Both the position numbers and the translations under genes were made by a program. The notes under the pieces are model-generated. The model ran no database searches. It was not told the origin of the DNA and saw only the letters and a list, made by a program, of their open reading frames with translations. Shown piece after piece: positions 17,716 to 29,516 of a stretch of 64,000 nucleotides of DNA. Within the stretch, counting starts at the first letter, position 1, and each line of letters begins with the position of its first letter. Source of the stretch: Rhizobium sp. ZPR4 (GTDB lineage Bacteria; Pseudomonadota; Alphaproteobacteria; Rhizobiales; Rhizobiaceae); NCBI RefSeq assembly GCF_040215725.1, contig NZ_CP157968.1, positions 62,001-126,000 of the forward strand, read 5' to 3'.

Positions 17716-18666
17716 CTAAATCAGGCCGCCTTCGAAGCTTTGCCACGCCGCGACGGCCTCCTCCACTGTGTGCCGAGACTCCGCCATATATCTCCCCATC
17801 GACACGAAGCCGTGGATCTGTCCCGGCCGATGGCGATGCACCATGCGTACCCCTTCTTCCTGCAGTCGCCTGGCATAGGCTATGCCTTCGTCGACCAGAA
17901 TGTCGTGTCCGGCAGTGGCGACAAAAGCCGGCGCCGATCCGGCAACGGACTTGGCTTGTAGCGGCGAGGTCCTCCAGTCAGCGATATCGGCTGCGGTGCG
18001 AATATAGTGATCGCGAAACCATCTCATCGTCGAGGCAGTCAAACCGAAGCCTTCGGCATAGCGGCGGTAGCTGTCGGCCGTCTGCGCAGCGTCCGTGTTC
18101 GGATAGATGAGCAATTGCGCCGCAAGCGGCGGAGCATCGCCGGGGCGAGACGTCAATGCCAACACGGCGGCAAGATTGCCGCCGGCGCTATCGCCGGCAA
18201 CGGCGATCCTGCTGGGATCGATGCCGAGATCCGCAGCCGATTTAGCCACAAATGCCAAAGTCGCAGTGCAATCGGTCAATCCGGCGGGGAACTTGTGTTC
18301 CGGCGCCAGCCGGTAGTCGGGACAGACTACGGTGCATTTGGCGATATTGGCGAACCATCGGCAGATTTCGTCGTGCGATTCGAGATTGCCGATCACCCAG
18401 CCGCCGCCGTGAAGGTAGATGAGACCCGGACCATCCTTCGAAGGCGCGCCGATACCGCGATAGATGCGCAAGGTGATCGGGCCATTCGGGCCGGCGATTT
18501 GCCGATCTTCCACCGAAGCCACAGCCTCCTTTCCACCCTGGATGGTCGGGCAATTCGCATCATAGTCGCTACGCGCCTGTTGAGGTGTACCGGTTTCAAA
18601 TGGCCGGCCTTTCGACCCGCTGCTCAGAGCGAGAACGCGCCGCGCGCTTTCATCCAGCTTTTCCAT
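17716..18666 (-). CDS. Alpha/beta hydrolase, HSL-type esterase
   Basis: Hormone-sensitive-lipase-like carboxylesterase, 316 aa. The oxyanion-hole motif is IYLHGGGWVIGN, the nucleophile serine is in VAGDSAGGNLAA, and the acid and base are probably in ATAGHDILVDEG and GQIHGFVS. No signal peptide. It follows the oxidoreductase at 18690 by 23 bp and is probably cotranscribed. Its position beside a sugar-import and oxidation locus suggests removal of an acyl group or opening of a lactone in that pathway, an inference only. Confidence 0.9.
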   Translation of the reverse strand: MEKLDESARRVLALSSGSKGRPFETGTPQQARSDYDANCPTIQGGKEAVASVEDRQIAGPNGPITLRIYRGIGAPSKDGPGLIYLHGGGWVIGNLESHDEICRWFANIAKCTVVCPDYRLAPEHKFPAGLTDCTATLAFVAKSAADLGIDPSRIAVAGDSAGGNLAAVLALTSRPGDAPPLAAQLLIYPNTDAAQTADSYRRYAEGFGLTASTMRWFRDHYIRTAADIADWRTSPLQAKSVAGSAPAFVATAGHDILVDEGIAYARRLQEEGVRMVHRHRPGQIHGFVSMGRYMAESRHTVEEAVAAWQSFEGGLI

Positions 18667-18689
18667 TGGATTGCCCTCCTCTGCGGCGA

Positions 18690-27404: not shown

Positions 27405-28438
27405 AAAAGGTCGCTCTTGCATTCGATCTGGGTGGAACGGAGCTTCGCGCCGCGCTTGTCGATGACATGGGATCTCTTCTATCGTTCGCGTCCCTGTCGA
27501 CGGATGCCGCCGGAGGTCCCGCCGCCGTCATCCGGCAGATCGAACTGCTGGCGGAAACCGTACTGGCGGAAACGCCCGATCTTTCTCCGATCGGGATCGG
27601 GATCGGCGCGCCCGGCCCGCTCGATCCGGACGCCGGTGTCGTCATTGCCGCCCCGACGCTGGCTGGATGGCATGAGGTTCCGCTGGCGGACATTCTCCAC
27701 CACCACTTCCAGCTGCCCGTGCGGCTTGAAAACGACGCGAACGCCGCAGCGCTCGGCGAATGGCGATACGGCGCCGGTCGTGGTACGGGGTCGATGGTGT
27801 TCGTCACGGTATCGACCGGCATCGGCGGCGGCGTGATTGCCAACGGCCGGATTTTGCACGGCCGACGAGGCCTGGCCGCAGAGATCGGCCATATGACGAT
27901 CACGAGCGAAGGTGAGCGATGCTTTTGTGGTGCCGTCGGCTGTTTTGAAGCCATTGCCTCCGGCACCGCGCTCGGCAGGCGGGCAACTGCCCGCACCAGG
28001 GCGTTCGACGGATCGATGCTGCGCAGCCTTGCCGCCGATACAGACGTAACCGGGCGACATGTCGTGGACGCTGCGCGAAAAGGCGACGCGCTGGCCGTGA
28101 AGCTGCTGAATGCAGAGGCGCGGTGGCTGGGGATAGGCTTTACCAACCTGCTTCACCTCTATTCCCCCGACGTGCTGGTCATGGGCGGTGGAATATCGCA
28201 CGGCTTCGATCTTCTGCACGATCAACTGGTGGCAACGGTTCGCGAGCGCGCCATGCCCGCCTATCGCAATGTACCGATTGTTGCCGCACAGCTCGGACGG
28301 CATGCCGGGCTCATCGGCGCAGCCAGTCTCATCTTCGACGGCTACGGAGAGACCGGCCTTAGGCAGATGCGTTTAGAAAGCGCGGACAATCCTGGCACAG
28401 ATATGTCCGCCGGTAAAAAGGAGGCCAGCAATGGCTAA
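27401..28438 (+). CDS. ROK-family sugar kinase
   Basis: ATP-dependent sugar kinase, 345 aa. The phosphate loop is FDLGGTELRAALV (residues 8-20), the catalytic aspartate is D112 in ENDANAAALGE, and the family zinc site is complete (H164 and C174, C176, C181 in CFCGAVGCFEA). GTG start at 27401 overlapping the previous stop (GTGA). No helix-turn-helix N-terminus, so it is an enzyme, not a repressor. It would trap the released sugar as its 6-phosphate, the form needed by the epimerase-like protein next to it. The ATPase gene starts inside its last codons. Confidence 0.9.
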   Translation: MKKVALAFDLGGTELRAALVDDMGSLLSFASLSTDAAGGPAAVIRQIELLAETVLAETPDLSPIGIGIGAPGPLDPDAGVVIAAPTLAGWHEVPLADILHHHFQLPVRLENDANAAALGEWRYGAGRGTGSMVFVTVSTGIGGGVIANGRILHGRRGLAAEIGHMTITSEGERCFCGAVGCFEAIASGTALGRRATARTRAFDGSMLRSLAADTDVTGRHVVDAARKGDALAVKLLNAEARWLGIGFTNLLHLYSPDVLVMGGGISHGFDLLHDQLVATVRERAMPAYRNVPIVAAQLGRHAGLIGAASLIFDGYGETGLRQMRLESADNPGTDMSAGKKEASNG

Positions 28439-29516
28439 TCTCAAGCTCCGCAGCGCTCACAAATCCTACGGCGCCCTCGAGGTCATCAAGGGCATCGATC
28501 TGGATGTGGACGACCGTGAGTTCGTCGTTTTCGTCGGCCCTTCCGGCTGCGGAAAATCGACACTTCTGCGCATGATTGCCGGTCTGGAAAAAATAACCGG
28601 CGGCGATCTGATGATCGATGGCACCCGTTCGAACGATATCGATCCGTCGCAACGTGGTCTGGCGATGGTGTTCCAATCCTACGCGCTCTACCCACACATG
28701 ACAGTCGCGGAAAATATGGGCTTTGCGTTGAGAATTGCCGGTGTTTCGACAGGCGAGCGCGATCAGAAGGTCAGGGAAGCCGCAAAGATTCTGGAATTGA
28801 CCCATCTGCTCGACCGCCGGCCGAAGGATCTGTCGGGCGGCCAGCGCCAGCGCGTAGCCATCGGCCGCGCGATCGTTCGCAATCCGAAGATCTTTCTGTT
28901 CGATGAACCGCTTTCCAATCTCGACGCGGCCCTACGCGTCAACATGCGGCTGGAGCTGATGCGCTTGCACGATGAGCTGGCCGCAACGATGATCTATGTC
29001 ACCCACGACCAGATCGAGGCGATGACCATGGCCGACAAGATCGTCGTCTTGAACAGTGGCCGCATCGAGCAGGTCGGCTCGCCACTTGCTCTTTACAATA
29101 ATCCTGCAAACATCTTCGTAGCCGGCTTCATCGGTTCACCGAAAATGAACCTGCTGCCGGCAACGGCTGAGACCATCGGCCCAGATGGCATATCCGTGGC
29201 ATTGGGTGGCGGGAGCACCATGACCGTTCCGGTCTTTTCCGAAAAGGTGAAGGTAGGGTCAAAACTGACACTTGGAATCCGCCCCGAACATATCCGTATC
29301 GGCCAAGGCGATCAGTTTACAGGACAGGTCGTGCTTGCAGAGCGGCTTGGGGGTCTGACGATCTTTCACGTCGCTACCGCATCGGGTCATTCGCTTGTCG
29401 TCCAGACAGAAGGCGCCGACAACACCCCACTCCATACACCGATCTCACTCCATATCGATCCGGGCATGTGTCATCTCTTCGACGATGAGGGAAAATCGCT
29501 CGCCAAGCTGAATTGA
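28431..29516 (+). CDS. CUT1-type sugar ABC importer ATPase (MsmK/UgpC-type)
   Basis: ATP-binding subunit, 361 aa. Walker A GPSGCGKST (about residues 38-46), Q-loop MVFQSYALYPH, signature LSGGQRQRVAIGRA, Walker B IFLFDEPLSNLD and H-loop YVTHDQ are all present. The C-terminal 120 residues form the OB-type regulatory domain (GIRPEHIRIG). AAGGAGG precedes the ATG, which overlaps the kinase stop by 8 bp. It ends the operon begun at 20015. As the only intact CUT1-type ATPase in the window, it could also energise the importers at 4217-7313 and 38591-41762; MsmK-type ATPases are known to serve several importers. Confidence 0.94.
   Translation: MANLKLRSAHKSYGALEVIKGIDLDVDDREFVVFVGPSGCGKSTLLRMIAGLEKITGGDLMIDGTRSNDIDPSQRGLAMVFQSYALYPHMTVAENMGFALRIAGVSTGERDQKVREAAKILELTHLLDRRPKDLSGGQRQRVAIGRAIVRNPKIFLFDEPLSNLDAALRVNMRLELMRLHDELAATMIYVTHDQIEAMTMADKIVVLNSGRIEQVGSPLALYNNPANIFVAGFIGSPKMNLLPATAETIGPDGISVALGGGSTMTVPVFSEKVKVGSKLTLGIRPEHIRIGQGDQFTGQVVLAERLGGLTIFHVATASGHSLVVQTEGADNTPLHTPISLHIDPGMCHLFDDEGKSLAKLN

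What the first reader, a model, noticed from the sequence alone, without database searches (positions are those of the whole stretch)
17716..29516. Candidate undescribed catabolic system for an esterified or modified sugar
Seen: a divergent locus with esterase and Gfo/Idh/MocA enzyme on one side and, on the other, a CUT1 importer with a Tat-like binding protein, an IolE-like barrel, a second Gfo/Idh/MocA enzyme, a second isomerase-type barrel, an alpha/beta hydrolase, an AlsE/Rpe-like protein, a ROK kinase and the ATPase, most joined by 1-8 bp overlaps. Known: paired Gfo/Idh/MocA dehydrogenases and TIM-barrel lyase/hydratases act in 3-keto pathways such as that for levoglucosan (LgdA/LgdB1/LgdB2/LgdC), and AlsE/AlsK pair in D-allose use. 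Inference: the substrate is an esterified or lactonised sugar or glycoside, oxidised at C3, cleaved, reduced and phosphorylated. I know of no characterised pathway with this full set.
Basis: partly seen in the sequence, partly recalled or inferred. Interest (0 to 1): 0.75.

Follow-up and report, generated by a model that had tools for sequence, protein, structure and literature searches.

The report
Unassigned rhizobial sugar-breakdown gene cluster
This is a well-conserved set of genes with which root-associated bacteria probably import and break down an unusual sugar or glycoside, by a route that resembles known 3-keto-sugar pathways but ends with a different kinase and epimerase; the sugar itself is still unknown.

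Summary
The gene set is real: LacI regulator, esterase and oxidoreductase GFO1, and divergently a ten-gene run: CUT1 importer, IolE-like barrel, oxidoreductase GFO2, second barrel, alpha/beta protein (ABH), Rpe-like epimerase, ROK kinase and ATPase. In the 80 closest named genome loci, GFO2-barrel2-ABH-Rpe-like are adjacent in 80; ROK is in 76, the IolE-like barrel in 75. The model strain R. johnstonii 3841 carries the set on pRL12. At least 6 of the 80 lack the esterase although its neighbours are there, so 'esterified sugar' is weak. No enzyme reaches the curated cut-offs tested for Lgd, Iol, Als, Rpe or PcaD. New: 50 of 80 loci carry a linked aldolase of one of three types; barrel 2 has His as putative fourth metal ligand; ABH has no invariant His at the usual catalytic place. 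Best reading: a 3-keto-sugar pathway (oxidation, beta-elimination, rearrangement) giving a ketohexose that is phosphorylated, 3-epimerised and, in many relatives, split by an aldolase. The chemistry is inferred; the substrate is unknown. New variant of a known kind.

The parts
16662..17696 (+). LacI-family regulator
   Evidence: Pfam LacI + Peripla_BP_3; same position in R. tumorigenes and R. johnstonii 3841; 45 of 80 loci, others partly cut off
17716..18666 (-). hormone-sensitive-lipase-type esterase (LipP1-like)
   Evidence: Abhydrolase_3 236.6 bits; LipP1 343 bits against cut-off 350; absent in at least 6 of 80 loci that keep its neighbours
18690..19847 (-). GFO1, Gfo/Idh/MocA oxidoreductase (orthologues are 3 residues shorter at the start)
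   Evidence: Pfam; nearest solved relative scyllo-inositol dehydrogenase with L-glucose dehydrogenase activity 5ya8, 85.1 bits; orthologues aligned; 68 of 80 loci
19848..20014 (.). divergent control region; near-palindrome TTGACGCGCGACAA at 19932-19945; leader hairpin from about 19970
   Evidence: TTGACGCGCG invariant in 29 of 29 aligned rows; only exact match in the window is here, three more matches at 2 mismatches (one is the same site on the other strand), 1.16 matches expected by chance; hairpin in 29 of 29 folded rows, no shuffle control
20015..21361 (+). CUT1 solute-binding protein with Tat-like signal (ORF can be read from 19961)
   Evidence: SBP_bac_1; nearest solved relatives MalE3 6dtq and trehalose/maltose-binding protein 1eu8; start from orthologue
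21363..22295 (+). permease 1 of the importer
22292..23128 (+). permease 2 of the importer
23134..23952 (+). barrel 1, IolE-like; putative metal residues H148, D180, H206, E246/E247
   Evidence: AP_endonuc_2; IolE 80.7 bits against cut-off 290; residues invariant in 5 of 5; 75 of 80 loci
23964..25040 (+). GFO2, Gfo/Idh/MocA oxidoreductase
   Evidence: Pfam; IolG 124.4 bits against cut-off 355; 80 of 80 loci
25040..25858 (+). barrel 2, xylose-isomerase-like; putative metal residues E153, D183, H215, H254
   Evidence: AP_endonuc_2; residues invariant in 52 of 52; AlphaFold pLDDT 96.8; fold matches UlaE and ketose 3-epimerases; 80 of 80 loci, but it was the search query
25858..26682 (+). ABH, PcaD-like alpha/beta protein; S94, D218 and K244 invariant, no invariant His after the last strand
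   Evidence: 57 of 57; AlphaFold pLDDT 96.6; fold matches enol-lactonase and AHL lactonase
26679..27404 (+). Rpe-like sugar-phosphate 3-epimerase paralogue
   Evidence: Ribul_P_3_epim; H49, D51, H82 and D195 kept in 9 of 9, the NPGFGGQ loop replaced; another Rpe lies elsewhere in the genome
27401..28438 (+). ROK-family sugar kinase
   Evidence: ROK 235.5 bits; ROK glucokinase subfamily 256.9 against cut-off 260.35
28431..29516 (+). MalK/UgpC-type ATPase
   Evidence: UgpC subfamily 470.7 bits against cut-off 432

Best explanation
An importer-coupled pathway for a glycoside or unusual sugar by 3-keto chemistry. Shown here: gene content, gene spacing, conservation, conserved putative active-site residues. 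Inferred, step by step: the binding protein and permeases bring in the substrate; GFO1 oxidises a ring hydroxyl (most likely C3) with NAD+; the IolE-like metal barrel removes the leaving group by beta-elimination, as AtOGE does and as IolE removes water; GFO2, barrel 2 and ABH (the constant block) rework the keto-sugar into a free ketohexose; the ROK kinase phosphorylates it; the Rpe-like enzyme inverts C3 of the ketose phosphate (allulose-6-P to fructose-6-P, or sorbose-6-P to tagatose-6-P); in many relatives a second kinase and an aldolase then cleave it to trioses. The exact reactions of barrel 2 and ABH are not known.
For: Constant enzyme set in the 80 closest loci. Barrel 1 keeps H148, D180, H206 and E246/E247, the order of ligands reported for AtOGE (PMC10628242 passages); strand positions are by alignment, no model of barrel 1 was made; its best solved relative is IolE 3cny. 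The nearest solved relatives of both dehydrogenases are sugar or inositol dehydrogenases and related enzymes, DgpA among them. Barrel 2 has the fold of ketose 3-epimerases, YcjR (3-keto-glucoside 4-epimerase) and AtHYD. The Rpe-like enzyme keeps catalytic residues although the genome has another Rpe. An aldolase is linked in 50 of 80 loci: DhnA-type in 41, each with a PfkB kinase, 33 of them between GFO1 and the IolE-like gene; LacD-type in 4; KbaZ-type in 7, each with a tagatose-kinase-like gene; two loci have both LacD and KbaZ. The binding protein's nearest solved relatives bind maltose, trehalose or sulfoquinovosyl glycerol.
Against: No step is tested. The aldolase count has no background control from random loci, and KbaZ/TagK neighbours may be an unrelated tagatose locus. 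The window's own locus has no linked aldolase: no DhnA orthologue was found (best 30%) and a LacD relative (86% to the Rhizobium sp. SL42 protein) lies about 1.5 Mb away on the same contig. ABH has no obvious role in a plain 3-keto route. The downstream block occurs without GFO1 and barrel 1, so the two modules need not form one linear path. The fold matches of barrel 2 span several functions. Rpe, a pentulose enzyme, is the best-scoring family for the epimerase.
Confidence: 0.4

Rival explanations
1. [quoted passage not shown] ABH and the Rpe-like gene are side functions.
For: Two dehydrogenases, two barrels, a sugar ABC importer and LacI, as in the Lgd locus (PMC7676230 passages); two barrels and two oxidoreductases as in the AtOGE operon (PMC10628242 passages); ROK is 256.9 bits against the 260.35 cut-off of the ROK glucokinase subfamily; AtHYD is among barrel 2's fold matches.
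Against: ABH and the Rpe-like gene are in 80 of 80 loci, which side functions need not be; glucose would not explain linked aldolases; GFO1 and GFO2 score 72.4 and 71.9 bits to levoglucosan dehydrogenase, cut-off 650; the downstream block also occurs without barrel 1 and GFO1.
Confidence: 0.2
2. A decarboxylating pentulose route: an aldose or aldonolactone is oxidised, ABH opens a lactone, the 3-keto-aldonate is decarboxylated by barrel 2 to a pentulose, ROK phosphorylates it and the Rpe-like enzyme makes xylulose-5-P.
For: Rpe is the best-scoring family for the epimerase (145.6 bits); ABH is closest in fold to a hydrolase 3om8, an enol-lactonase and an AHL lactonase; GFO2's top solved relative is glucose-fructose oxidoreductase.
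Against: Linked bisphosphate-type aldolases do not fit a pentulose; ABH lacks an invariant His at the usual catalytic place; a normal Rpe is already present.
Confidence: 0.15
3. A cyclitol pathway parallel to myo-inositol catabolism: GFO enzymes as inositol-type dehydrogenases, barrel 1 as an inosose dehydratase, ABH as the ring-opening C-C hydrolase, then isomerase, kinase and aldolase.
For: IolE is the best-scoring family of barrel 1 and IolG of GFO2; PfkB and DhnA-type aldolase in 41 of 80 loci recall IolC and IolJ; ABH fold matches include C-C hydrolases; an inositol-dehydrogenase-like gene with an IolE-like gene lies upstream in the window.
Against: All far below the Iol cut-offs; canonical IolE is elsewhere in the genome at 367.5 bits; ROK and Rpe-like genes have no part in inositol catabolism (recalled).
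Confidence: 0.15
4. A sugar-stereoisomer conversion like E. coli YcjQRS, in which two dehydrogenases and a barrel epimerise a 3-keto-glycoside (guloside to glucoside).
Confidence: 0.1

Closest known systems
Levoglucosan pathway LgdA/LgdB1/LgdB2/LgdC (PMC7676230)
   Same: LacI, sugar ABC importer, two dehydrogenases (LgdC a Gfo/Idh/MocA enzyme), two barrels annotated as sugar phosphate isomerases (passages)
   Different: No Rpe-like, ROK or alpha/beta gene among the genes named in the passages; the dehydrogenases here are far below the LgdA cut-off
Agrobacterium O-glycoside eliminase operon GlycDH/AtOGE/AtHYD/Gfo (PMC10628242)
   Same: Two oxidoreductases plus two barrels; barrel 1 has a matching H/D/H/E order
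   Different: GlycDH is a flavin enzyme of another type (recalled); no ROK, Rpe-like or ABH gene in the passages read; AtOGE was not among the 15 profile matches of barrel 1
E. coli ycj cluster (YcjQ/YcjR/YcjS; PMC11543891)
   Same: ABC sugar importer, LacI-type repressor, two dehydrogenases and a barrel of the same fold
   Different: Phosphorylases and a phosphoglucomutase instead of ROK, Rpe-like and ABH
D-allose pathway AlsE/AlsK
   Same: A 3-epimerase of the Rpe superfamily next to a ROK kinase
   Different: AlsE 107.7 of 271 and AlsK 131 of 253 bits; extra dehydrogenases, barrels and ABH
myo-inositol catabolism (IolG/IolE/IolC/IolJ)
   Same: Gfo dehydrogenase and IolE-like barrel; PfkB and aldolase in 41 of 80 relatives
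   Different: Below IolE and IolG cut-offs; canonical IolE elsewhere in the genome

Membership tests
Levoglucosan dehydrogenase LgdA (NF052479) | score over curated cut-off 650 | tested here: not met
   GFO1 72.4, GFO2 71.9 bits
Lgd pathway | barrels orthologous to LgdB1 and LgdB2, reductase to LgdC | not tested
   LgdB1, LgdB2 and LgdC sequences were not fetched
Bacteroides 3-keto pathway BT_2158/BT_2159 families | cut-offs 750 and 650 | tested here: not met
   GFO1 26.2 and 21.1; GFO2 46.6 and 39.3 bits
myo-inosose dehydratase IolE (TIGR04379) | cut-off 290 | tested here: not met
   barrel 1 80.7 bits; 367.5 for the IolE elsewhere in the genome
inositol 2-dehydrogenase IolG (TIGR04380) | cut-off 355 | tested here: not met
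   GFO1 68.3, GFO2 124.4 bits
D-allulose-6-phosphate 3-epimerase AlsE (NF007266) | cut-off 271 | tested here: not met
   107.7 bits
ribulose-phosphate 3-epimerase Rpe (TIGR01163) | cut-off 212.6 | tested here: not met
   145.6 bits
Rpe superfamily (PF00834) | gathering cut-off and catalytic Asp pair | tested here: met
   140.9 bits, cut-off 21.1; D51 and D195 invariant in 9 of 9
allose kinase AlsK (NF007251) | cut-off 253 | tested here: not met
   131 bits
ROK glucokinase subfamily (TIGR00744) | cut-off 260.35 | tested here: not met
   256.9 bits, a near miss
3-oxoadipate enol-lactonase PcaD (TIGR02427) | cut-off 255.85 | tested here: not met
   82.3 bits
canonical alpha/beta hydrolase (for ABH) | Ser-Asp-His triad | tested here: inconclusive
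   S94 and D218 invariant in 57 of 57; of the positions 240-254 tallied after the last strand, K244 is invariant and none is an invariant His (251 is H in 24, Y in 33); H28 and H221 are invariant but their place in the model was not measured
AtOGE-type 3-keto-glycoside eliminase | H/D/H/E metal site and eliminase activity | tested here: inconclusive
   residue order present in barrel 1; activity not testable; AtOGE not among 15 profile matches at E up to 1
YcjR 3-keto-glucoside 4-epimerase | fold and activity | tested here: inconclusive
CUT1 sugar importer | SBP_bac_1 protein, two permeases, MalK/UgpC ATPase | tested here: met
   UgpC subfamily 470.7 against cut-off 432

The most novel reading that the evidence does not exclude
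The block GFO2-barrel2-ABH-Rpe-like-ROK is an undescribed exit route from 3-keto-sugar chemistry: the 3-keto sugar is not reduced back to glucose but turned into a C3-epimeric ketohexose, phosphorylated, and corrected at C3 by a dedicated ketohexose-phosphate epimerase before aldolase cleavage, with barrel 2 (His as fourth metal ligand) and ABH (no invariant His at the usual catalytic place) catalysing reactions not yet known for their families.
Probability: 0.22. Interest if true: 0.72.

Novelty: new variant of a known kind. Interest (0 to 1): 0.48.

Why it matters
The scan of one genome per species confirmed 540 stretches that encode a barrel-2 relative, and 18 of 199 family genomes have an Rpe-like match at E up to 1e-30, the own genome included. 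The set sits on pRL12 of the model strain R. johnstonii 3841, for which transposon data are in print (PMC5118466 passages). Finding its substrate would show which plant- or microbe-derived sugar these bacteria can use, and could add reactions to the metal-barrel and alpha/beta-hydrolase families.

Tried and rejected
No title or abstract beginning listed there describes this gene set; the lists were capped at 8 to 20 papers, searches found none, and the library holds only open-licence PubMed Central papers, so absence is weak. Seen in passages only: PMC10628242, PMC7676230, PMC11543891, PMC5118466, PMC5936775. PMC5936775 names a ribulose-phosphate 3-epimerase mutant of R. tropici; nothing in the passages ties it to this operon.

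Rejected: filing under AlsE/AlsK or LgdA; a canonical inositol operon; 'esterified substrate' as the key feature. The promoter scan found 2 sites against 3.3 +/- 1.9 in shuffles, none in the divergent region, and 13 terminator-like sites against 9.4 +/- 3.8, so it says nothing for or against cotranscription. Distant barrel-2 relatives lie in other surroundings: S. meliloti (23%; beside a LacI and a Gfo gene) and Catenovulum (25%). Two plasmid records had no gene annotation; their genes were found by tblastn instead. VIA-align did not separate epimerase, hydratase and isomerase readings of barrel 2. AtOGE was not among the 15 profile matches of barrel 1.

Dropped or limited before counts: one search kept the closest 80 of 540 confirmed stretches and barrel 2 was its query, so counts describe close relatives and barrel 2 is present by choice; one search uses identity and coverage thresholds that I set, and genes cut off at a locus edge count as missing there; one search likewise (alignment over 40% of the query, identity 30 or 40% by gene); one search took 30 sequences with window-type binding protein and aligned 29, one being identical over its first 120 letters.
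Full report
OBSERVATION. The stretch 16662-29516 holds thirteen genes: a LacI regulator (+), an esterase and a Gfo/Idh/MocA oxidoreductase GFO1 (both -), and ten + strand genes: binding protein, two permeases, IolE-like barrel 1, GFO2, barrel 2, an alpha/beta protein ABH, an Rpe-like epimerase, a ROK kinase and a MalK/UgpC-type ATPase (families). 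Six of nine junctions in the + run overlap by 1-8 bp and three have gaps of 1, 5 and 11 bp (coordinates). The window lies in a 7.7-Mb genome in 7 contigs. The nearest locus found is from Rhizobium rhizogenes 17-2069-2c, 98-100% over all thirteen proteins; the species of the window is an inference.

CONSERVATION. A genome scan with a barrel-2 alignment confirmed 540 stretches and kept the closest 80. In those 80: GFO2, barrel 2 (the query), ABH and the Rpe-like gene 80 each, ROK 76, IolE-like barrel 75, GFO1 68, LacI 45, esterase 45, window-type binding protein and permeases 30 each, ATPase 27 (many misses upstream are cut-off edges). Neighbours on one strand: GFO2-barrel2, barrel2-ABH and ABH-Rpe-like 80 of 80 each, Rpe-like-ROK 77 of 77 (lower identity threshold), IolE-like-GFO2 74 of 75. 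Another binding protein, not of the window type, is in 34 of 80. In the wider family 18 of 199 genomes match the Rpe-like protein at E up to 1e-30, the own genome included. A Paraburkholderia plasmid carries GFO2 (64%), barrel 2 (45%), ABH (40%) and a ROK gene (34%), so the block reaches Betaproteobacteria.

TWO MODULES. In the plasmid stretches fetched (about 25 kb each), Rhizobium sp. SL42, Aureimonas and two Agrobacterium plasmids carry GFO2-barrel2-ABH-Rpe-like-ROK without GFO1 and the IolE-like barrel; Agrobacterium salinitolerans has the first four with a ROK gene further on, and Mesorhizobium jarvisii lacks the Rpe-like gene. They stand beside ribose-type or other sugar importers. So the downstream block is separable, and LacI, esterase, GFO1 and barrel 1 look like an upstream addition. 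In R. johnstonii 3841 the set is on pRL12, with 40-69% identity to the window's enzymes and LacI. By counting genes in order, its aldolase and Rpe-like genes correspond to pRL120027 ('Aldolase') and pRL120033 ('D-allulose-6-phosphate 3-epimerase'), both marked NE, which I read as non-essential, in the transposon table of PMC5118466 (passages).

ESTERASE. 50 of 80 loci show it at 60% identity or more. Six (L061, L065, L074, L075, L092, L100) have LacI beside a full-length GFO1 with no room for it; four (L034, L049, L066, L068) lack an intact upstream module; 20 are cut off. It is thus frequent but not required.

LINKED ALDOLASES. In the 80 loci a DhnA-type class I aldolase is present in 41, the same 41 that have a PfkB kinase; in 33 of the 41 it lies between GFO1 and the IolE-like gene and in 8 elsewhere in the locus. 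LacD is in 4 (a ROK-P-loop fusion kinase in 3), KbaZ in 7, each of these with a tagatose-kinase-like gene (13 loci in all); any aldolase in 50 of 80. Of the fetched plasmid loci, L020, L021 and L024 have LacD and L022, L029 and L031 DhnA. This points to a ketohexose phosphate as end product, but no background rate was measured. The window's own genome has no DhnA orthologue (best 30%); a LacD relative lies about 1.5 Mb away on the same contig.

ACTIVE SITES. Barrel 1: H148, D180, H206 and E246/E247 invariant in 5 of 5. In AtOGE the metal is held by His132, Asp163, His189 and weakly Glu233 on strands 5-8 (PMC10628242), so an eliminase-type site is plausible. Barrel 2: E153, D183, H215 and H254 invariant in 52 of 52; in the model (pLDDT 96.8) they lie at the ends of strands 5-8. 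The usual fourth ligand in this fold is Glu (recalled; Glu233 in AtOGE). Its best fold matches are UlaE, an isomerase Art22, L-ribulose 3-epimerase and D-allulose 3-epimerases, with YcjR and AtHYD a little lower, so the fold does not decide the reaction. ABH: S94, D218 and K244 invariant in 57 of 57, no invariant His at positions 240-254 after the last strand; H28 and H221 are invariant and could serve instead. The profile alignment to the lactonase 5egn ends just before the place where its His is expected (that residue is recalled). The model (pLDDT 96.6) matches a hydrolase 3om8, enol-lactonase, AHL lactonase and C-C hydrolases. The Rpe-like protein keeps H49, D51, H82 and D195 but has GTxIGVKGQ where Rpe has NPGFGGQ. 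The genome's other Rpe scores 272 bits to PF00834 against 141 for this one.

CONTROL REGION. Between GFO1 and the binding protein, TTGACGCGCG is invariant in 29 of 29 aligned rows; TTGACGCGCGACAA at 19932-19945 is a near-palindrome with no other exact match in the window. It may be the LacI operator; not tested.

READING. The best explanation is a 3-keto-type sugar pathway ending in a phosphorylated, C3-epimerised ketohexose. Confidence is modest (0.4), because no reaction is shown and two enzymes have no assigned step. The closest known systems (Lgd, AtOGE operon, ycj) share dehydrogenase-plus-barrel logic and, for Lgd and ycj, a sugar importer and LacI, but not the ROK/Rpe-like/ABH block in the passages read. 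None of the ten proteins reached a curated cut-off, so the locus is not filed as a member of any of those families; it may still work like them.

Noticed in passing
window 8857-11878: A second sugar or cyclitol cluster: an oxidoreductase at 539.3 bits against the 540 cut-off of bifunctional inositol/D-chiro-inositol dehydrogenase, an IolE-like barrel (48.4 of 290 bits) and an RbsB-like binding protein.
   Followed up: partly
window about 19970-20014: Leader hairpin (CTGGCG...CGCCAG with GGAGG in or near the loop) just before the binding-protein start, predicted in 29 of 29 rows; the pair outside it is A-U in most Rhizobium rows, G-U in L050, L055 and L060, unpaired in L043 and G-C in most Mesorhizobium rows. 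No shuffle control was run.
   Followed up: partly
L114 14036-20270 (R. johnstonii pRL12): A further ABC sugar importer, a ThuA-family gene and another Gfo/Idh/MocA gene follow directly downstream; at 40% identity and 60% coverage ThuA matched only L031, L114 and L115 among the fetched loci.
   Followed up: partly
L021 4398-5831: A ROK kinase fused to a P-loop AAA_33 domain (477 aa) next to a LacD-type aldolase; possibly a two-step kinase.
   Followed up: no
L028 8998-12657 (Phyllobacterium): A variant block in which barrel-2 and ABH relatives stand with a PIG-L deacetylase and a distant Gfo enzyme, hinting at an amino-sugar version.
   Followed up: no
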